A DNA stretch of 64,000 nucleotides from Polyangia bacterium. GTDB taxonomy: Bacteria; Myxococcota_A; Polyangia; Polyangiales; Sandaracinaceae. The stretch spans positions 1-64,000 of the forward strand of contig JAUHXR010000010.1 in assembly GCA_030426845.1 (NCBI GenBank), in the 5' to 3' direction. The notes beneath the pieces are model-generated. The model saw nothing but the letters and a program-made list of their open reading frames with translations, did no database searches and was not told the DNA's origin. Both the position numbers and the translations under genes were made by a program. This document shows positions 37,341 to 63,816 of the stretch, piece by piece. Every line of letters begins with the position of its first letter. Position 1 is the first letter of the stretch.

Positions 37341-39431
37341 ATGGCGTCCGAGGACGGAGGCGCGGCCGGCGGCGACACGCCGGCCCCTCGACCGGTGCGG
37401 AGGAAGCGAGGCGCGCCGACCCTGATCGGGATGGCCGTGGCGAAGCCCGGCGCCGACGGTGATCCCAAGCCGGCGAGGCCGCCCGCGCCCGGGATCCCGG
37501 CGCCCGCGATCCCGGTGCCCAAGGGCTTCCCGGCCCCCGGTCGTGCGCTCGGCGCGCCCAAGATCCCCCCCGCCGGTCTGCCGCCCAAGGGGACCAAGCC
37601 CGCCCGCTCGCATGGGGCCGCCGCCTCCCCCCCCGGTGGGCCACGTCCCCGGCCTCCGGGCGGGGGGCTCGGCGCAGCACCGGCCACCCCCGCCTCGTCG
37701 CCTCTTACGCCGGCCTCCGAGGCCGCGCGGTTGAAGCCTGAGCAAGCAGAGGCCGCGCCCGCCGCCGGGGAGACCCCGTCCTCCGAAGCGCGTCTCGACG
37801 CAGCGCTCGATGCGCAGCTCGACGCAGGGCCCGTTGCCGGGCCCGACGCAGGGCCCGATCCGGAGTCCGGCGCGGGGCCCGGTCCGGAGTCCGGCGCGGG
37901 GCCCGATTCGGGGCTCGACGCGACGGTCGAGGAGGGGTCCTCGCCGCGCCTCCCTGCGGCCAACGAGGTCCCGGAGGAGGACACCGTCGCGGCGCGGCCC
38001 CGCAGCGAGCCGCCGAGCCGGCCGGCCCACGACCCGACGACCGCGCCGGGCGCCTCCGCGACCGAGGCGGCGATCGCGCGCGACGCGGGCCTCGCGGCGA
38101 TCGAGGTGGACGAAGCGACCGCCGAGGTCTCGACGTCGGAGGTCACCGAGCTGGCCGGTGAGCCGACCGCGATCACCGCGCTCCCGGACGGCGACGAGGG
38201 CGCGTCGACGACCGGCGATCTCGCGCCCCCGGCCCCGCTACCGGAGGAGGCGACCCGGCCCCGCGCCGAGGCCTCGATCCAGTTCGAAGACACCGCGCCG
38301 CTCGACCCCTACGAGGTCTCGCCCTCCGACCTGCCGCCGCTCGGGACGGCCCCGGCGGGCGACGCCGGCGAGCTCAAGGTCGGGCCGACGGTGGTCGTCG
38401 ACCCGGCCGCGCTGCAGGAGCAGCAGCGCTCCAACAGCGCCCAGCTCCAGATCGACATGGGGTCGGGCGAGGTGTCGGCCGCGCCGGAGCTCGCGCCGGT
38501 CCCCACCGTGGTCACCCCGCGCGCCAAGTCGAACGTCGGCCTGATCATCGGCGCGGTGATCGGCGCGCTCGTGGTGCTCAGCGGGCTCGGGGTCGCGGTC
38601 TACTTCCTCCTGCTGCACGAGGACTCGCCCACCACCGCGGCCGCGGTCGATCCCCCGACCGAGGGCGAGGGCGGCGAGGTCCCCGGCCCGCACGGGACGA
38701 CCACGGTCAGCGGGCCGGAGGTCGAGGCGCCGACGGGCCCGCTGGAAGTCGAGGGCGGCGAGGGCTCGGTGAGCCCCGAGGGCTCCGACGACGGCGTCGA
38801 GGGCGTCGAAGGCGTCGAGGGCGTCGAGGGCGAGGACGAGGCCGACGGCGAGGACGCGACCGGCGACGAGGCGACCGGCGACGAGGCGGCCGGCGACGAG
38901 GCCGCAGACGGCGAAGACGGTGAGGTCGACGAATCGGACGGCGACGACGAAGCCGAGGACTCCGTCCCGCCCGCGCCTGGCGGCGTGGTCGACCAGGCGA
39001 CCCTCGAGGGGGCCGAGGTCGACCTGCCCGCGCTGTCGCGCCGCGCCCGGCGGATGCCGGAGGCTCAGCGCCGCCGCATGTCCGCGCGGCTCCGAGGCCA
39101 GGCCCTGTTGCGCTACCGCGCGGAGGCCTACGCGGACGCGGAGCGGCTCTACCGCGAGGCGCTCACCTACAACTCGTGGGACGTGGCTGCGGTCGAGGGC
39201 GTCGCGCGGTCGCTCGCCCAGCAGGGCCGCTACCCGCTCGCCCTCGCGTGGGCGAACCTCGCGGTCGACCGCAACCCGCGCTCGGCCACCGCGATCCGGA
39301 TCGTCGGCGACATCTACCGCCAGGCCGGCCACCCGGACGAGGCGCTGCGCGCCTACCGCCGCGGGCTTCGCCGCCACCCGAACGACCGCCACCTGCGCCG
39401 CCGGGTCCGCGAGCTGCGTCAGGCCGAGTAG
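37341..39431 (+). CDS. Large TPR protein with membrane helix and low-complexity arms
   Basis: A 696-residue protein. The N-terminus carries RRKRGAPTLIGMA, then about 350 residues of Pro/Ala/Gly- and Glu-rich sequence. One membrane helix lies near residue 400 (VGLIIGAVIGALVVLSGLGV). An acidic segment follows with short DNA tandem repeats. The C-terminus (about 555-696) has tetratricopeptide repeats (YRAEAYADAERLYREALTY, YPLALAWANLAVDRNP, DEALRAYRRGLRRHPNDRHL). The topology suggests a cytoplasmic N-arm and a periplasmic TPR domain, or the reverse. It could be a scaffold in a signalling or motility complex; no family-level function is known. Confidence 0.78.
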   Translation: MASEDGGAAGGDTPAPRPVRRKRGAPTLIGMAVAKPGADGDPKPARPPAPGIPAPAIPVPKGFPAPGRALGAPKIPPAGLPPKGTKPARSHGAAASPPGGPRPRPPGGGLGAAPATPASSPLTPASEAARLKPEQAEAAPAAGETPSSEARLDAALDAQLDAGPVAGPDAGPDPESGAGPGPESGAGPDSGLDATVEEGSSPRLPAANEVPEEDTVAARPRSEPPSRPAHDPTTAPGASATEAAIARDAGLAAIEVDEATAEVSTSEVTELAGEPTAITALPDGDEGASTTGDLAPPAPLPEEATRPRAEASIQFEDTAPLDPYEVSPSDLPPLGTAPAGDAGELKVGPTVVVDPAALQEQQRSNSAQLQIDMGSGEVSAAPELAPVPTVVTPRAKSNVGLIIGAVIGALVVLSGLGVAVYFLLLHEDSPTTAAAVDPPTEGEGGEVPGPHGTTTVSGPEVEAPTGPLEVEGGEGSVSPEGSDDGVEGVEGVEGVEGEDEADGEDATGDEATGDEAAGDEAADGEDGEVDESDGDDEAEDSVPPAPGGVVDQATLEGAEVDLPALSRRARRMPEAQRRRMSARLRGQALLRYRAEAYADAERLYREALTYNSWDVAAVEGVARSLAQQGRYPLALAWANLAVDRNPRSATAIRIVGDIYRQAGHPDEALRAYRRGLRRHPNDRHLRRRVRELRQAE
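37860..37907 (+). repeat. Two 24-bp tandem repeats in the TPR protein gene
   Basis: Two direct copies of a unit beginning CCGGAGTCCGGCGCGGGGCC differ only near their ends. They encode PESGAGPG-type sequence in frame. Confidence 0.6.
38793..38828 (+). repeat. Four 9-bp tandem repeats (Val-Glu-Gly)
   Basis: GGCGTCGAG or GGCGTCGAA occurs four times in a row. It is followed from about 38850 to 38910 by 15-bp units around GACGAGGCGACCGGC. Both keep the frame and look like replication-slippage products. Confidence 0.65.
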
Positions 39432-56146: not shown

Positions 56147-57439
56147 ATGGCCCGCCTCCGTCGGACGAGCCTCCTCCCGGCGGCGGCGGCTGTCGCGCTG
56201 GCGTCCGGCGCGCTGGTGTCCGGCGCGCTGGTGTCCGGCGCGCTGGTCTCGGTCGCCGAGGCCCAGCCGGCGGACGCCCGGCCCGCGGGGGCCCCGCCGG
56301 CGGGTGTGCTGCCGCGGGGAGACGAGGCCTGGTTCGAGGCCGGCCGAGAGGGGATCCGGGGCGTCACGATCGGACCGATCGAGAGCTCGCTGTTCCCGGG
56401 CCGCGGCTACGGCACGCCGTCGACCGCCGCGCTCCTCGACTTCCTCTGGCGCCGCGGGGTGCGCTGGGTGTCGATCACCCCGTTCGGGCGGATCTGGAGC
56501 CTCTCGAGCACCCACATCCAGATGGACTTCGAGGCGCCCTACGAGGACAACCGCGCGGGCATCCGCGACTTCGTCGCCCAGGCCCACGCGCGCGGCATGC
56601 AGGTCCTGCTCATCCCCCACCTCTGGGTCGAGACCGAGGGCTGGCGCGGCGAGATCGACCCCGGCAGCCCCGAGGGCTGGCGCGCCTACCAGCGCAGCTA
56701 CCGGGAGTTCGTCCTCGCGTGGGCCCGCGACGCTCAGGCGGCTGGGGTGGACGGCTTCTCGATCGGCGTCGAGTGCAAGAGCTTCTCGGGACGGTTCGGG
56801 GCCTTCTGGCGGGCGCTCATCGCGGACGTGCGCGCGGCCTTCGACGGGTGGCTGACGTACAGCGCCAACTGGGACGAGGCCGAGGACGTGCTCTTCTGGG
56901 ATCAGCTCGATCTGATCGGGATCAACGCGTTCTACCCGCTGGCCGACCACGACGACGCGAGCTTCGACGAGTACGTCGCCGGCGCGGAGCGGGCGGCCGC
57001 CGCGGTGGGCGAGCTGGCCGAGGTCCTCGAGAAGCCGGTGCTCTTCGTCGAGGTCGGCTACACGACGCGTGAGAACGCGGCCGTCCAGCCGTGGCTCTGG
57101 CCCGACGGGATGGACGGCGTCGTGGTGAGCGAGCGCGAGCAGGCGCGAGCGCTCCTCGCGAGCCTCCGCGCGTTCCTGCCGCGCCGCTGGTTCACCGGCT
57201 TCTTCGTCTGGCGCTACTACGCCGACCTCGACGACGTGTCCCAGGAGGCGATCTGGGGCTTCAGCCCGCACGCCAAGCGCGCCGAAGGGACGCTCGAGCG
57301 AGTGTTCGCCGAACCGTGGGGTGTCGACCCCGATCCCTTGTCCTGGCTCGACCGGCCAGCCCCGCCGCCGGTGCCCTTCGCGCGCCGCCTCGCGGAGACC
57401 GAGCGCCTCTACACCTCGACCGTCCTGCCTCGGATGTAG
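56147..57439 (+). CDS. Exported GH113-like TIM-barrel hydrolase
   Basis: The 430-residue protein has an expanded signal peptide (SGALV three times) and cleavage near AEAQ. The barrel shows GVTIGPIESSLFPG, VSITPFGRIWSLSS, VLLIPHLWVE, FSIGVECKSFSGRF with the probable acid/base Glu, YSANWDEAEDVLFWDQLDLIGINAFYPL and VLFVEVGYTT with the probable nucleophile Glu. This is the order of family GH113, whose studied members cut beta-1,4-mannan. It may feed on polysaccharide or trim the organism's own. It starts 10 bases after the lipoprotein gene, in one operon. Confidence 0.82.
   Translation: MARLRRTSLLPAAAAVALASGALVSGALVSGALVSVAEAQPADARPAGAPPAGVLPRGDEAWFEAGREGIRGVTIGPIESSLFPGRGYGTPSTAALLDFLWRRGVRWVSITPFGRIWSLSSTHIQMDFEAPYEDNRAGIRDFVAQAHARGMQVLLIPHLWVETEGWRGEIDPGSPEGWRAYQRSYREFVLAWARDAQAAGVDGFSIGVECKSFSGRFGAFWRALIADVRAAFDGWLTYSANWDEAEDVLFWDQLDLIGINAFYPLADHDDASFDEYVAGAERAAAAVGELAEVLEKPVLFVEVGYTTRENAAVQPWLWPDGMDGVVVSEREQARALLASLRAFLPRRWFTGFFVWRYYADLDDVSQEAIWGFSPHAKRAEGTLERVFAEPWGVDPDPLSWLDRPAPPPVPFARRLAETERLYTSTVLPRM
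56203..56247 (+). repeat. Three 15-bp tandem repeats in a signal peptide
   Basis: GTCCGGCGCGCTGGT occurs three times in frame and lengthens the hydrophobic core of the signal peptide by two extra SGALV units. Confidence 0.8.
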
Positions 57440-57663
57440 GACTCCTGGGTCACGTCTGCGACGGCCCTCGCTCGTTCAGCGCTTCCGTCTGGTCCGCCCC
57501 CTCCTCCCGGGGGCGAGTAGCCCCTGCTCGTCAGTCGCGAACCGCCCGAAGACGCTCCCCGTCGCGATCATCCGGCCGACATGTGCCCCAGTCGTCGTAG
57601 CCCGCCGCGCCGCGGCCCGCGCCCGGCTCTGCCGTTTTCTTGCCCCCCGTTCGGGCCGCGGAG

Positions 57664-57669
57664 TACCGA
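57664..57669 (+). promoter_or_regulatory. Putative -10 box (TACCGA) of ftsE
   Basis: TACCGA, 6 bases, then the ATG at 57676. The rest of the 236-base gap after the GH113-like gene holds a GGGGC-N5-GCCCC hairpin (57510-57524) without a T-run and nothing else recognisable. Confidence 0.4.
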
Positions 57670-57675
57670 GTCTCC

Positions 57676-58458
<783 letters not shown>

Positions 58459-58474: not shown

Positions 58475-59353
58475 ATGCTGAAGAAGGCGATCACCCGCGC
58501 CGCGCGCGCGATCCGTGAGGACGCGAAGCTCCACCTCGTGAGCGTCTCGAGCCTCACGGTGGCGTTCCTCTGCCTCGCCACCGCGCTTTGGGCGATGGCG
58601 AACCTGAGCACCGTCGCCGACGCCTGGGGCCGCAGCGGGCGCATGAGCGTCTACCTCACCGAGGGCGCCGAGGCGGAGCAGGTCGAGCAGCTCCGCCTCC
58701 TCCTCGAGGGGCTGCCCGAGGTCGCGCGCGTCGAGCTCCTCACGAGCGCGGAGGCGCGGGCCCGCTTCCTCGAGGACGCCTCGCTCAGCGAGTCCCTCTC
58801 GGATCTGCCGACCGACGCCTTCCCCGCGTCGCTCGAGATCACGCTGGCTCGCGGGGTCGCGGACGCGCGGCTCGAGGCGATCGTCGAGCGGGTCGGCCGC
58901 TTCAGCGCGGTCGACGAGATCGAGACCTACCGCGGCTGGTTCGACCGCCTGGAGTCGCTCCTCACCGCCGGCCGCGTGGCCGCGGGGGTGCTCGCCGGGC
59001 TGGTGCTCCTCTGCGTCCTCTTCGTCGTCGCCAACACCATCCGGCTCGCCATCGCGGGCCGCCGCGACGAGATCGAGGTGCTCAAGCTGTGTGGCGCCTC
59101 CGACGGCTTCGTCCGCGGGCCCTTCCTCGTCGAGGGCGCGGTCCAAGGCTTCGTCTCGGCGCTCCTCGCGCTGCTGCTCCTCTTCGCCGCCTTCGTCGCG
59201 CTTCGAGGCCACGTCGACTCGACCCTCGCGTCCCTCGCGGGGGTCCGCACCGTCTTCCTCCAGCCGACCGTCGCGCTCGCGCTGGTGTTCGGCGGCGCGC
59301 TCATCGGCGCGACCGGCTCGCTGCTCTCGCTCCGCCGGTACATGGCCGTCTGA
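58475..59353 (+). CDS. ftsX: FtsX, cell-division membrane protein
   Basis: The 292-residue protein has a first helix at about 22-45 (HLVSVSSLTVAFLCLATALWA), a periplasmic domain of about 120 residues (VYLTEGAEAEQVEQLRLLLEG and following) and three C-terminal helices. The cytoplasmic loop between helices 2 and 3 is AGRRDEIEVLKLCGAS, the conserved contact with FtsE. It passes ATP-driven conformational change to the periplasmic activator encoded next. GGAGGAGG precedes the ATG. Its stop overlaps the envC-like start (TGATG). Confidence 0.95.
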   Translation: MLKKAITRAARAIREDAKLHLVSVSSLTVAFLCLATALWAMANLSTVADAWGRSGRMSVYLTEGAEAEQVEQLRLLLEGLPEVARVELLTSAEARARFLEDASLSESLSDLPTDAFPASLEITLARGVADARLEAIVERVGRFSAVDEIETYRGWFDRLESLLTAGRVAAGVLAGLVLLCVLFVVANTIRLAIAGRRDEIEVLKLCGASDGFVRGPFLVEGAVQGFVSALLALLLLFAAFVALRGHVDSTLASLAGVRTVFLQPTVALALVFGGALIGATGSLLSLRRYMAV

Positions 59354-60324
59354 TGGGGGCCCTGACGAAGACGCCGGCGCGCGCCCGGCGCCCGCTCACG
59401 CTGGGCCTCCTGGCCGCGGTCGGCCTGCTCGGCCTCAGCGCCCAGGCCGAGTCGCAGCTCGGGGTCGAGGCGCGCGGATCGGCGCTCGCCCAGGCGCTCG
59501 ACGACGCGGAGTCGGCGCGTAACGAGCAGAGCCGGCTCGAGGGCGAGCTCGAGGCGCTGGTCGGCCGGCGCAACGGCGCGCGCCAGCGGCTGCGCTCCCA
59601 CGTCCGCACGTTCTACCGGCTGCGCCGCGCGGGCGCGCTGCCGCTCGCCGGCGGCTTCGAGGCGCTGCTCACGCACCAGGCCCGGGTCGATCGGCTCGAG
59701 CGCATGGTGCAGCGCGACGTGGACGGCCTGCGCCGGATGGACAGCCGGGTCGGTGAGCTGCGCGGCAGCGTCGCCCAGGTGGCCGGCCGCATCGAGGCGC
59801 TCGACGCGCGCGCCGAGGAGCTGCGCGCCGAGGAGCAGGCGCAGCTCGATCAGATGGAGATCTTGTCGGGCATGATCGAGGATCCCGCCGCGTGGAGCGG
59901 GCCGGCGATGGGCGGCGGCGGCTTCGGCATCCGCTACTCGGACGGCGCGCCGCTCCCGGGCGGGCTCGCGTCGGAGCGCGGTCGGCTGCCGCTGCCGGTC
60001 TCGGGCTCGGTGCAGCTCCGCGACGCCCAGCGCGAGGGGGGCGCCGGCCTCGACGTCCTCGCGGAGCTCGACGCGCGGGTGCGCGCGGTGGCGCCCGGTC
60101 GTGTCGCCTACGCGGCCGCGCACCCCGGCTACGGGCGGCTCGTGATCCTCGAGCACCCCGGTGAGTACTTCACGGTCTACGGCGGCCTCGGCCGCGTCAC
60201 GGTGCAGACCGGCGACGCCGTCCCGCGCGAGGCGGTCCTCGGCGTCGTCGGACCCCAGGCGCTGTTCTTCCAGGTCCGCCGCGGCACGCGACCGCTCTCG
60301 GCGCGGGAGTGGCTCGGGATCTGA
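59353..60324 (+). CDS. envC: EnvC-like amidase activator with degenerate LytM domain
   Basis: The 323-residue exported protein has a signal peptide (LTLGLLAAVGLLGLSAQAES), a long coiled coil (about 40-170, recruiting to FtsX) and a C-terminal LytM/M23 fold (VRAVAPGRVAYAAAHPGYG, then ILEHPGEYFTVYGGL). In active M23 enzymes the last motif reads YxHL; here it is Tyr276-Gly-Gly-Leu, and LxFE(I/L)R has become LFFQVR, so zinc-dependent cutting is lost. This matches EnvC, which activates amidases without cutting. The position directly after ftsX confirms the role. Confidence 0.9.
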   Translation: MGALTKTPARARRPLTLGLLAAVGLLGLSAQAESQLGVEARGSALAQALDDAESARNEQSRLEGELEALVGRRNGARQRLRSHVRTFYRLRRAGALPLAGGFEALLTHQARVDRLERMVQRDVDGLRRMDSRVGELRGSVAQVAGRIEALDARAEELRAEEQAQLDQMEILSGMIEDPAAWSGPAMGGGGFGIRYSDGAPLPGGLASERGRLPLPVSGSVQLRDAQREGGAGLDVLAELDARVRAVAPGRVAYAAAHPGYGRLVILEHPGEYFTVYGGLGRVTVQTGDAVPREAVLGVVGPQALFFQVRRGTRPLSAREWLGI

Positions 60325-60336
60325 CGTCTCGTCCGC

Positions 60337-60342
60337 TATGCT
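60337..60342 (+). promoter_or_regulatory. Putative -10 box (TATGCT) of the 60361 gene
   Basis: TATGCT ends 18 bases before the ATG, and GGGAGGCG gives a ribosome-binding site. It allows this gene separate transcription from ftsEX-envC. Confidence 0.4.
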
Positions 60343-60360
60343 CCCGCCGCGGGAGGCGAG

Positions 60361-61125
60361 ATGAGCAAGCAGCTGCAGTTCGGGGGCGACGTCCCCTTCG
60401 TGGATCGACAGACCGGGCGCTCGGTGCCGGTGAAGGTGTGGGGCGTCCTCGTGGGGACCGGGATCGACGGCCACGAGGAGGACGCGATCCGCCAGTGGGT
60501 GCTGAACGCCCTGGCGAGCTCGGCGATGAGCTACGACGGAGCGCTCACCGACCTGCCGGCGCGCGGCGCGGAGTGGGGCCACTACGTCTGGCAGCAGATC
60601 GGCCCGCAGCTCGCGCAGCAGTTCCAGGTGCAGGGCCAGCTGCAGATCCAAGGGGTCGCGCTCCCCGACGGGATGGGCGCGCCGGTGGCCGCGGCCGCTC
60701 CGGCGCCGGCCGCGAAGGGCGGCGGTCTCGATCCGGTCGCGCTCGCGCTCGTCCAGCGCCTCGGCCTGCCCGAGGACGTCGCGCGGCAGGCGGCGGCGAT
60801 CGCGGTCGAGGTGATGCAGGGCGGCGGCTCGGGCGTGACCAAGGCGGCCTACGGTCAGCCGGCCAAGCACGCGGAGCCGGTCAAGCAGAGCTACGCCCAG
60901 CCGGCCAAGCACGCGGAGCCGGTCAAGCAGAGCTACGCCCAACCGGCCAAGCACGCGGAGCCGGTCAAGCAGAGCTACGCCCAGCCGGCCAAGCACGCGG
61001 AGCCGGTCAAGCACGCGGAGCCGACCAAGCAGAGCTACGCCCAGCCGGCCAAGCACGCGGAGCCGTCGAAGCAGAGCTACGGGCAGCCGTCCGGCAAGGA
61101 GAGCTGGGACAAGGGGACGAAGTGA
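60361..61125 (+). CDS. Hypothetical protein with 14-residue C-terminal tandem repeats
   Basis: The 254-residue soluble protein has an N-terminal beta-rich domain (about 1-100; VDRQTGRSVPVKVWGVLVGTG, QQFQVQGQLQIQGV), loosely like the C-terminal part of SPFH/virion-core-like proteins. A helical segment follows (about 120-150). From residue 164 comes a 14-residue repeat, KHAEPVKQSYAQPA, in about five copies, one with an extra KHAEPT. The repeat is Lys/His/Tyr/Pro-rich and probably disordered; it could bind an anionic polymer or act as a phase-separating tail. It sits between the division operon and a protease gene and overlaps the latter's GTG. Confidence 0.72.
   Translation: MSKQLQFGGDVPFVDRQTGRSVPVKVWGVLVGTGIDGHEEDAIRQWVLNALASSAMSYDGALTDLPARGAEWGHYVWQQIGPQLAQQFQVQGQLQIQGVALPDGMGAPVAAAAPAPAAKGGGLDPVALALVQRLGLPEDVARQAAAIAVEVMQGGGSGVTKAAYGQPAKHAEPVKQSYAQPAKHAEPVKQSYAQPAKHAEPVKQSYAQPAKHAEPVKHAEPTKQSYAQPAKHAEPSKQSYGQPSGKESWDKGTK
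60850..61077 (+). repeat. Five 42-bp coding tandem repeats
   Basis: Units start at 60850, 60892, 60934, 60976 and 61036. The fourth has an in-frame 18-bp partial duplication. Copies are almost identical in DNA, which means recent expansion or active homogenisation. Confidence 0.9.
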
Positions 61126-63353
61126 CCCGACGCGCGCTCTCGCGGCTCGGCCCGATCGCGCTCGGCCCGATCGCGCTCGGCCTCTCGCTCGTCGCGGCGC
61201 TCCTCGCGCCCGCCGACGCGGCCGCCCAGCTCACACCGGGCGCCGGGGCGCGCGTGGAGCCGTCGCTCGGGGTGGGGGCGCGCGTCCTGCGCGGGGTCGA
61301 CGGACGGATCCGCCGCGCGTGGGCGCTCGAGGTGGCGGTGGACGGGGCCGGCCCCTCCGCGCGCGCGGCCGACTTCCTCGCCCGCCACGGCGGCACGCTC
61401 GCCCTCGCGCCGGGCGCGTCGCTGCGCGAGGCGCGGGTCCACTCGGCCCACGGGCTCGACACCGTCCGCTACGAGACGTGGACGCGCGGCGCGCGGCTGG
61501 TCGGCGCGACCGTCGTGGTCCGCCTGCGCGAGGACAGGGTGGTCTACGTGGGCGCCGACGGCGGCGACGTCCGCCTCGTCGGTTCGCACCGCCTCGCGCC
61601 CTCGGCGGCGGTCGCGCGCGTCGCCGCGCCCGAGGAGCGGCTGCTCTCGGCCGAGCGCGCGTGGCTCGCGCTCGACGGCGAGGCGGTCCCGGTGCTCCGG
61701 CTCGATCTCGCGGGCGATCGGCGCGCGCGCCGGCGGCGCGTGATCGTGGACGCGCGCGACGGCGCGGTGCTCGGTGAGCGCCCCCTCGCTTCGGACGCGC
61801 TCGGGCGCATCTACATGACGAACCCGCGCAGCGACATGAACGCGACCGTCGACGTGGATCTGCCGTCGCTGACGAGCCGCGACCGCATCACCGGCCGGTT
61901 CTTCCGCGTCCTCAATTGCAACCCCGGCGCGCGGGGCTGCGAGCCCGCCCAGCTCGCGGTCGCCGACGTGAACGGCGACTTCCTCTACGACCCCGAGGAG
62001 CCGGCCTTCGAGGACCCCTTCGCGGAGGTCCACACCTACTTCCACGCCAACCGCGCGGCCGAGCACTTCCGCGACGTCCACGGCTTCACCTGGGCGTGCG
62101 GGACCGAGACGCTGATGCGCGTCTTCGTGAACTACGCCGAGGCGCCCCGGACCCCGTACGACAACGCAGCGTACAGTCCGTCCTCCGGCGCGGAGTGCGG
62201 CTTCATGCTCTTCGGCCAGGGCGCGACCCAGGACTTCGCCTACGACAGCGACGTCATCTACCACGAGTTCGGCCACGCGGTGGTCGACCAGGTCTCGGAC
62301 CTCGGGTTCTTCTTCGTCGACGGTCTCGGCGCGGCCTACGACCCGCTCGCTGTCAACGAGGGTGTCGCGGACTACTTCGCGGCCACCATCAGCGGCGACC
62401 CGCGGATGGCCGAGTACTTCGAGGGCACCGGGATGGCGGGCGAGAGCGCGCTGCGCAACCTCGACAACAGCCTCGTCTGCCCGAACGACCTCGTCGGCGA
62501 GGGGCACTTCGACGGCCGCATCTGGGCCGGCGCGGGCTGGGACCTGCGCGAGGCGCTCGGGGTGGAGAAGGCCGACGCGCTGGTGTTCTCGGCCATCTCG
62601 GCCGTGCCCGAGACGGTGAGCCTCGCCGAGCTCGCCGAGGTGCTGACCGCGAGCGCGGCCAGCCTCGAGGCGTCCGGCGTGCTCGAGGCCGCCGATCTCG
62701 ACGTGGTCGCCGGGGTGCTCGCCGCGCGCGGGCTCGCGGGCTGCGAGCGGGTCGTGCCCCTCGACGACGGCGAGCCCCGCCTCGGCTACTCCGGCACCGG
62801 GCAGATCACGGTCGCGGCTGGCGCGGGCATCGCGCCGGTCCGCTACCGGGTCGACGTCCCGGCCGACGCGACGTCGGTGCGGCTGAGCCTCACGCGTCTC
62901 AGCGCGGGGGGGACGTTCCGCGTCATCGCGACGACCGGGGAGGCGCCGCCCCGCTTCCGCGCCACCGCGCGCCCGCCGCTGCGCGGCGAGGAGCTGACCC
63001 CCGACGTCGACGGCCGGATCGTCTGGTCGCCTGGCGGCGCCCCGGACCTGCCGCGCTGCGAGACGCTGCAGATCGCGGTCCTGACCGACGATCTCGCGAC
63101 GGTCGGGGCCGCGCTCTACCAGATCGCGGCCGAGATCGAGCGAGACGGGAGCGGCGCGCGCTGCGATGATCCCGACGCTGGTCCGGCCGCGCCGGCCGAC
63201 GGCGGGGTGGACGACGCGGGCCCCTCGGACCTGGTGCCGGGCGGCGGCGGCTGCGGGTGTCGGGTCGGCGACTCGCGTCGTGGAAGCCTCGGGTGGGCGA
63301 TGGCCGGGCTGCTCTGCGCGCTGGGCTTCGCGGCGCGACGACGGCGAGGCTGA
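61122..63353 (+). CDS. Secreted M4/M36-like metalloprotease with MYXO-CTERM tail
   Basis: The 743-residue protein starts at GTG 61122. A signal peptide (LGPIALGPIALGLSLVAALL) is followed by an FTP-type propeptide (HGLDTVRYETWTRGARLVGA, then VGADGGDVRL). The catalytic domain has HEFGH at residues 381-385 (zinc ligands His381 and His385, catalytic Glu382) and NEGVADYF with the third ligand Glu413. The fungalysin/thermolysin order is clear. The tail GGGGCGCRVGDSRR, a hydrophobic helix and RRRRG is a typical MYXO-CTERM sorting signal, so the mature enzyme is exposed on the cell surface. Confidence 0.88.
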   Translation: MTRRALSRLGPIALGPIALGLSLVAALLAPADAAAQLTPGAGARVEPSLGVGARVLRGVDGRIRRAWALEVAVDGAGPSARAADFLARHGGTLALAPGASLREARVHSAHGLDTVRYETWTRGARLVGATVVVRLREDRVVYVGADGGDVRLVGSHRLAPSAAVARVAAPEERLLSAERAWLALDGEAVPVLRLDLAGDRRARRRRVIVDARDGAVLGERPLASDALGRIYMTNPRSDMNATVDVDLPSLTSRDRITGRFFRVLNCNPGARGCEPAQLAVADVNGDFLYDPEEPAFEDPFAEVHTYFHANRAAEHFRDVHGFTWACGTETLMRVFVNYAEAPRTPYDNAAYSPSSGAECGFMLFGQGATQDFAYDSDVIYHEFGHAVVDQVSDLGFFFVDGLGAAYDPLAVNEGVADYFAATISGDPRMAEYFEGTGMAGESALRNLDNSLVCPNDLVGEGHFDGRIWAGAGWDLREALGVEKADALVFSAISAVPETVSLAELAEVLTASAASLEASGVLEAADLDVVAGVLAARGLAGCERVVPLDDGEPRLGYSGTGQITVAAGAGIAPVRYRVDVPADATSVRLSLTRLSAGGTFRVIATTGEAPPRFRATARPPLRGEELTPDVDGRIVWSPGGAPDLPRCETLQIAVLTDDLATVGAALYQIAAEIERDGSGARCDDPDAGPAAPADGGVDDAGPSDLVPGGGGCGCRVGDSRRGSLGWAMAGLLCALGFAARRRRG
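61146..61182 (+). repeat. 15-bp tandem repeat in a signal peptide
   Basis: CTCGGCCCGATCGCG occurs twice plus a partial third copy, encoding LGPIA repeats that lengthen the hydrophobic core. Confidence 0.75.
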
Positions 63354-63810: not shown

Positions 63811-63816
63811 TACGCT
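63811..63816 (+). promoter_or_regulatory. Putative -10 box (TACGCT) of the 63826 gene
   Basis: TACGCT, 9 bases, then the ATG at 63826. Divergent from the TATCCT box of the neighbouring lipoprotein gene. Confidence 0.4.

What the first reader, a model, noticed from the sequence alone, without database searches (positions are those of the whole stretch)
60361..61125. 14-residue His/Lys/Tyr/Pro repeat protein next to the division operon
Five nearly identical 42-bp units (one with an 18-bp partial duplication) encode KHAEPVKQSYAQPA repeats after a folded N-terminal domain. DNA-level identity implies recent expansion. The basic, aromatic, proline-spaced repeat is of the kind that forms condensates or binds polyanions. 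It lies 36 bases after envC and overlaps a surface protease gene.
Basis: partly seen in the sequence, partly recalled or inferred. Interest (0 to 1): 0.5.

Follow-up and report, generated by a model that had tools for sequence, protein, structure and literature searches.

The report
SPFH-like protein with disordered repeat tail
A rare myxobacterial gene encodes a small, apparently soluble protein whose folded half resembles the core of membrane-scaffold (SPFH/stomatin-type) proteins and whose other half is a fast-changing, lysine- and tyrosine-rich disordered repeat; its place beside cell-division genes looks incidental.

Summary
In detail: ORF 60361-61125 (254 aa) holds five 14-residue KHAEPVKQSYAQPA-type units plus an 18-bp partial duplication, 36 bp after envC, overlapping a protease gene by 4 bp. 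The real news is the "folded N-terminal domain". AlphaFold folds residues 1-100 confidently (block means 91-96) and the top structural matches are SPFH cores (prohibitin Z 11.9; stomatin, HflK/C, flotillin, vault). The same domain sits behind SPFH-like domains in three relatives. By sequence alone the SPFH link is weak. No membrane segment; tail predicted disordered. The one full-length orthologue found (a Sandaracinaceae MAG) keeps the domain (62%) but carries a different repeat (DPYAAKAQKMGQP / DPYAQKGAAP) with like chemistry: lysine without arginine, regular tyrosine, weak net charge, but no histidine. The division link is weak: the gene follows envC in 2 of 7 assessable family genomes, and both copies have a TATGCT promoter-like element and abut the protease gene. 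Best reading: a soluble stand-alone SPFH-core scaffold/adaptor with multivalent disordered tails, a variant of a known kind. Condensate, polyanion and septal roles are untested.

The parts
60361..61125 (+). gene of the repeat protein, 254 aa
   Evidence: in-frame full-length relative in G003 (46% over residues 3-244)
60361..60681 (+). residues 1-107: SPFH-type (band 7) core domain, strand-strand-helix-helix-strand
   Evidence: AlphaFold block means 91-96 over residues 1-100; VIA-align Z 11.9 prohibitin, 10.6 stomatin
60682..60726 (+). residues 108-122: Ala/Pro/Gly linker, low confidence
   Evidence: pLDDT under 50 at 107-120
60727..60822 (+). residues 123-154: two-helix segment, aligned with a similar segment in the G003 orthologue
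   Evidence: helices 125-134 and 138-153, block means 65, 77 and 74; alignment
60865..61092 (+). five KHAEPVKQSYAQPA-type 14-residue units plus the partial unit; predicted disordered
   Evidence: pLDDT block means 42-58 from residue 151 on, no secondary structure after 153
60991..61008 (+). 18-bp partial duplication (KHAEPV)
60337..60342 (+). TATGCT, a -10-like element 24 nt before the start; TATGCT also lies between envC and the start in G003
   Evidence: promoter role is inference
61122..63353 (+). next gene: M4-type metallopeptidase with a signal-peptide-like start (by eye), GTG start overlapping the stop by 4 bp
   Evidence: Pfam Peptidase_M4 30.4 bits, cut-off 22.4
59353..60324 (+). envC-like gene (M23 peptidase), context
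   Evidence: Pfam Peptidase_M23 54.7 bits; NCBIfam EnvC model 29.2 bits, far below its cut-off of 270, so the name rests on domain and position
58475..59353 (+). ftsX, context
   Evidence: Pfam FtsX and FtsX_ECD over their cut-offs
57640..58458 (+). ftsE, context
   Evidence: Pfam ABC_tran and position before ftsX

Best explanation
The gene encodes a soluble, presumably cytoplasmic protein made of one stand-alone SPFH-type core domain, a two-helix segment and a disordered Lys/Tyr/Gln/Pro repeat tail. Inferred mechanism: the SPFH core self-associates or docks on another SPFH protein of the cell (the genome has one Band_7_1 protein over the Pfam cut-off, with a GYPPQQ stretch and two zinc-ribbon-like motifs), and the tails then present many weak Tyr/Lys contacts to a partner, much as soluble YdjI helps to bring PspA to the membrane in Bacillus subtilis. 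The tail is kept for its chemistry, not its exact sequence, and is rebuilt by in-frame repeat turnover. Shown: anatomy, repeat, predicted fold, an orthologue with a different repeat, fusion of the domain to SPFH-like domains elsewhere. Inferred: location, oligomerisation, partner, cellular role.
For: Confident model of residues 1-100. Of the first 23 rows of the structural ranking 22 are titled as SPFH-family or vault entries and one only 'membrane protein'; prohibitin Z 11.9, rmsd 1.9, 93 residues. The domain is fused behind SPFH-like domains in G003 C157, G044 and G106: Band_7_1 scores 28.4 bits in G106 (over the cut-off of 24) and 18.8 in G003 (under it); the G044 protein was not scanned with Pfam, but matches the genome's own SPFH domain at 2.3e-7. 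Profile link to 15 Band_7_1 proteins (chosen from 32 hits) 82.8% against at most 3.9% in 60 column shuffles, when the fused domains are included. No hydrophobic segment (best 19-residue hydropathy mean 0.94). Tail without predicted structure. Both tails have 15 Lys and no Arg, while six neighbouring genes have 17 Lys and 213 Arg; Tyr spacing mostly 10-14; net charge +0.073 and +0.047. Comparator YdjI: soluble SPFH protein with a low-complexity region (PMC8581546, passages seen).
Against: Pfam finds no Band_7 match in the protein itself, and with five stand-alone rows only the profile link falls to 3.6%, no better than shuffles. Ribosome chains (recalled to be eS1) and FliL reach Z 8.6-9.6, only about 2 below the best SPFH match. 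No evidence of oligomerisation or of any partner. Only one orthologue with a tail was found, so conserved tail chemistry rests on two sequences, and repeat copies are not independent observations.
Confidence: 0.45

Rival explanations
1. The tail is a by-product of replication slippage, tolerated because it hangs off a disordered end; only the SPFH-type core matters.
For: Units nearly identical at DNA level and different between the two orthologues; four of the six proteins that begin with this domain have a second domain and no repeat (sequences; second domain modelled for one).
Against: Two different repeats share Lys without Arg, regular Tyr, Pro and Gln, where Lys is 7% of Lys+Arg in six neighbouring genes; of 14078 overlapping 96-residue windows in rough gene calls of this window (some on a wrong strand) none had 10 Lys and 5 Tyr.
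Confidence: 0.3
2. A nucleic-acid or polyanion-binding condensate former driven by the basic aromatic tail.
For: Predicted disorder, Lys/Tyr/Pro/Gln composition, tail pI about 9.6 and 9.3 in the two orthologues.
Against: Net charge per residue only +0.073 and +0.047, no Arg; His not conserved.
Confidence: 0.12
3. A division factor acting with FtsEX-EnvC at the septum.
For: Next to ftsE-ftsX-envC in the window and in G003.
Against: After envC in only 2 of 7 assessable family genomes; in the others a convergent protease, a kinase-like gene or other ORFs follow; TATGCT precedes the gene in both; no hydrophobic segment, whereas EnvC acts outside the membrane (recalled); no FtsE, FtsX or EnvC match in the 12-18 kb around the relatives in G037, G045, G052 and G032.
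Confidence: 0.07
4. The N-terminal domain is not of SPFH descent but another protein with a similar fold (for example eS1-like or FliL-like).
For: Ribosome chains (eS1, recalled) and FliL reach Z 8.6-9.6; stand-alone rows give no significant profile match to Band_7_1; no Pfam match.
Against: SPFH chains rank first; the domain is fused to SPFH-like domains in three relatives.
Confidence: 0.1

Closest known systems
YdjI of Bacillus subtilis (soluble SPFH protein; PMC8581546, passages seen)
   Same: SPFH-type fold, no predicted transmembrane anchor, low-complexity region
   Different: YdjI has an SPFH domain recognised by sequence and a zinc-finger motif near its C-terminus; the window protein has only an SPFH-like core, no cysteine, and a Lys/Tyr repeat tail
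Band_7_1 protein of the same genome (G000:C81, L071)
   Same: SPFH domain followed by a low-complexity Tyr/Pro/Gln stretch
   Different: full Band_7_1 domain (67.9 bits), Gly-rich and GYPPQQ region, two zinc-ribbon-like motifs (by eye)
Stomatin / prohibitin / HflK-C / flotillin core domains
   Same: predicted fold of residues 1-105, Z up to 11.9
   Different: no membrane anchor, no predicted long coiled coil, different C-terminus; 6-19% identity in the listed SPFH rows
Tandem-domain proteins of G037, G045, G052, G032 (L051-L054)
   Same: homologous N-terminal domain (27-31% identity to the window protein), Ala/Pro linker
   Different: a second domain in place of the repeat tail; no ftsE, ftsX or envC nearby

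Membership tests
SPFH / band 7 superfamily | SPFH core fold | tested here: met
   AlphaFold model and VIA-align Z up to 11.9; a predicted, not a solved, structure; chains of other families reach 9.6
SPFH / band 7 superfamily | sequence relation to Band_7 / Band_7_1 profiles | tested here: inconclusive
   no Pfam Band_7 match in the protein; profile link 82.8% only with the fused domains, 3.6% without
SPFH / band 7 superfamily | ring or cage oligomer | not testable with these tools
   no complex prediction or experiment available
flotillin / stomatin / HflK-C type membrane SPFH proteins | N-terminal hydrophobic membrane anchor | tested here: not met
   best 19-residue hydropathy mean 0.94; the first strand of the core starts at residue 3
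YdjI-type soluble SPFH proteins | zinc finger near the C-terminus | tested here: not met
   the protein has no cysteine
FtsEX-EnvC division machinery | conserved position after envC | tested here: not met
   2 of 7 assessable family genomes
Pfam CRA_rpt (cytoplasmic repetitive antigen) | repeat homology | tested here: inconclusive
   22.1 bits, just over the cut-off of 21.4; best stretch in repeat residues 211-239; I take it as shared composition

The most novel reading that the evidence does not exclude
A minimal SPFH protein: a soluble single-core SPFH domain that assembles into rings or docks on a full SPFH protein and carries lineage-specific, fast-turning sticker tails, making a cytoplasmic scaffold whose binding specificity evolves by repeat replacement under a fixed chemistry.
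Probability: 0.15. Interest if true: 0.55.

Novelty: new variant of a known kind. Interest (0 to 1): 0.3.

Why it matters
If right, SPFH cores can be used without membrane anchor or coiled coil, as a bare scaffold for a disordered tail, and the two orthologues are a natural pair for asking whether tail chemistry rather than sequence is selected. Otherwise it is an ordinary rare accessory gene that happens to lie beside a division operon.

Tried and rejected
Division-operon partnership: tested by synteny, not supported. Other proteins with the repeat in the own genome: apart from the gene itself five matches at E up to 1, the best 0.004 (opposite strand of the same locus) and 0.017, taken as compositional; no further exact copy of the unit word. 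Plasmids and phages with the N-terminal domain: no match at E 0.01. The first genome-contig scan, with the whole protein, confirmed no relative; the second, with the domain alignment, gave five loci. PDB by sequence: nothing credible. NCBIfam: nothing credible for this protein. Folding of the RNA around the start: z-score +0.90, nothing. Pfam CRA_rpt taken as compositional.

Rows dropped: 18 of 56 genomes (own included) match at E 0.01, but most rows are weak (3e-4 to 0.01). I kept the six strong rows outside the own genome and dropped the rest from all counts; their frames were read (L012-L015, L017, L020, L026, L030, L031) or as best alignments (L014 again, L016, L018, L021, L022, L025, L028, L029; L019 gave none, L023 and L027 only chance matches). 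They look like unrelated repeat or low-complexity frames, several with stops. The nearest in kind is L014 (G035), a 151-aa frame with HAQPSR/KHAQP units; whether it is a gene was not tested.

The gene caller picked the wrong strand at 58930-61056, so its K/(K+R) of 0.085 was replaced by six Pfam-supported genes. The second domain of the tandem proteins was modelled for one; the structural ranking covered residues 1-110 only, so its fold class is not shown; profile comparison gives 78.1% with Band_7_1 proteins and 70.9% with the first domain, without shuffle controls. The phylum search with the narrower alignment A2 gave 4 of 377 genomes and missed G044, which A1 had found.

Literature listings seen: SPFH + myxobacteria (3 papers), SPFH + virion core protein + bacteria (0), SPFH superfamily + prokaryotic + SPFH domain (6), two of SPFH domain / intrinsically disordered / bacterial flotillin (28, of which 10 listed), Sandaracinaceae + SPFH (0), SPFH domain + low complexity + repeat + cytoplasmic + bacterial (0). 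Passages seen of PMC2636767, PMC8581546 and PMC13086221. None of what I saw describes this architecture; most subscription papers are not in the library.

Full report
Observation. The ORF at 60361-61125 is real and as described: 254 aa, ATG 36 bases after the envC stop, stop overlapping the GTG of the next gene by 4 bp. The tail has five 14-residue units and one 18-bp partial copy, a period-42 array scored 309 by Tandem Repeats Finder and far beyond codon shuffles (42/42 against at most 27/42 in 200 shuffles). The unit word has six exact matches in the held genome, all here.

Who has it. With the whole protein, one full-length relative appears among 56 genomes searched (own included): G003, 46% over residues 3-244. 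With a profile of the N-terminal domain, 8 of 183 genomes of the order, the same 8 of 317 of the class, 4 of 377 sampled in the phylum with a narrower profile and, with the window's domain alone, 2 of 10 in the family have a match; the own genome is counted in each. Two other architectures were seen: the domain followed by an Ala/Pro linker and a second domain (G037, G045, G052, G032), and the domain at the C-terminus of SPFH-like proteins (G003 C157, G044, G106). In these last, Pfam Band_7_1 scores 18.8 bits in G003 (under its cut-off of 24) and 28.4 in G106 (over it); the G044 protein was not scanned with Pfam but matches the genome's own SPFH domain at 2.3e-7.

What the folded part is. AlphaFold with a six-row alignment gives block means of 91-96 for residues 1-100, strand-strand-helix-helix-strand. 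Foldseek's first hit is the stomatin SPFH domain (E 8.6e-4), with ribosome chains from rank 4 on. VIA-align puts prohibitin first (Z 11.9, rmsd 1.9, 93 residues), with vault, HflK/C, stomatin, flotillin and erlin following; ribosome chains (recalled to be eS1) and FliL reach 8.6-9.6. By sequence the case is weaker: no Pfam Band_7 match for the protein; profile comparison with 15 Band_7_1 proteins, chosen from 32 hits, reaches 82.8% (60 column shuffles at most 3.9%, reversed 0.1%), but only if the fused C-terminal domains are in the profile; with five stand-alone rows it is 3.6%. I therefore call it SPFH-type by predicted fold and domain fusion; descent is probable, not proven.

The tail. Predicted disordered (pLDDT block means 42-58, no secondary structure). 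The orthologue's tail has other units, DPYAAKAQKMGQP (13) and DPYAQKGAAP (10), also near-identical at DNA level. Common to both: 15 Lys and no Arg (six neighbouring genes of the window: 17 Lys, 213 Arg), Tyr every 10-14 residues with one gap of 20 and one of 7, Pro, Gln and Ala, fraction of charged residues 0.24 and 0.23, net charge +0.073 and +0.047. Not common: His (6 against 0), and Glu versus Asp. Repeat copies are not independent and there are only two tails, so this is suggestive, not a test. A two-helix segment at residues 125-153 of the model has an aligned counterpart in the orthologue.

Surroundings. GH113-ftsE-ftsX-envC is kept in the window and in 7 of 8 other family contigs with ftsX, but the repeat gene follows envC only in the window and in G003. 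In G005 other ORFs lie between envC and the protease, in G001 and G006 the protease gene is convergent directly after envC, in G002 and G007 a kinase-like gene (by eye) follows: 2 of 7. Not assessable: G004 and G009 (contig ends) and G008 (no ftsX match). Around the relatives in G037, G045, G052 and G032 no FtsE, FtsX or EnvC match was found in the 12-18 kb fetched. In both genomes with the gene, TATGCT lies between envC and the start (24 and 34 nt before the ATG), the envC gap differs (36 and 67 nt), and the protease follows at once (4-bp overlap; 2-nt gap if its first GTG is the start). TANGCT is rare in the window (6 places on both strands; another, at 63811, lies 15 nt before an ATG whose product matches a G003 protein, 56% over 57 residues). 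So the gene more likely shares a transcript with the protease than with the division genes; that is inference.

Mechanism. The best-supported reading is a soluble scaffold or adaptor: an SPFH-type core for assembly and a disordered multivalent tail for weak contacts. The nearest studied analogue I found is YdjI, a soluble SPFH protein with a low-complexity region that works with PspA, YdjG and YdjH (PMC8581546, passages seen). A survey of prokaryotic SPFH proteins (PMC2636767, passages seen) sorts them into 12 subfamilies; I did not see this architecture in the passages shown. Whether the core oligomerises, what it binds and whether the tail condenses are all untested.

Verdict. The finding is a new variant of a known kind, of modest interest.

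Noticed in passing
G000:C81:9108-9731 (L071) and L076, L078, L080, L085: The genome's Band_7_1 SPFH protein has a GYPPQQ stretch and two zinc-ribbon-like motifs; some relatives carry long GYPPQ/GYPPP repeats after the SPFH domain.
   Followed up: partly
56147-57439: A GH113-family glycoside hydrolase gene precedes ftsE in the window and in 7 of 8 other family contigs with ftsX.
   Followed up: no
56194-56247 and 61140-61182: The starts of two secreted-looking proteins (GH113 and M4 protease) both contain 15-bp tandem repeats, in what look like signal peptides.
   Followed up: no
63230-63353: The M4 protease ends in a Gly/Cys stretch, hydrophobic helix and Arg cluster, like a MYXO-CTERM sorting tail (name recalled; NCBIfam gave no match to this protein).
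   Followed up: no
37796-37922 and 38786-38949: Further short tandem repeats with periods 12-24 and 7-15.
   Followed up: no
60337, 63811, 41047: Rare TANGCT elements lie 24 and 15 nt before start codons, and one directly before an ATG; they may be promoter -10 elements.
   Followed up: partly
L014 (G035), 1435-1887: A 151-aa frame in another genome of the order holds HAQPSR/KHAQP units similar to this tail; may be a chance frame.
   Followed up: no
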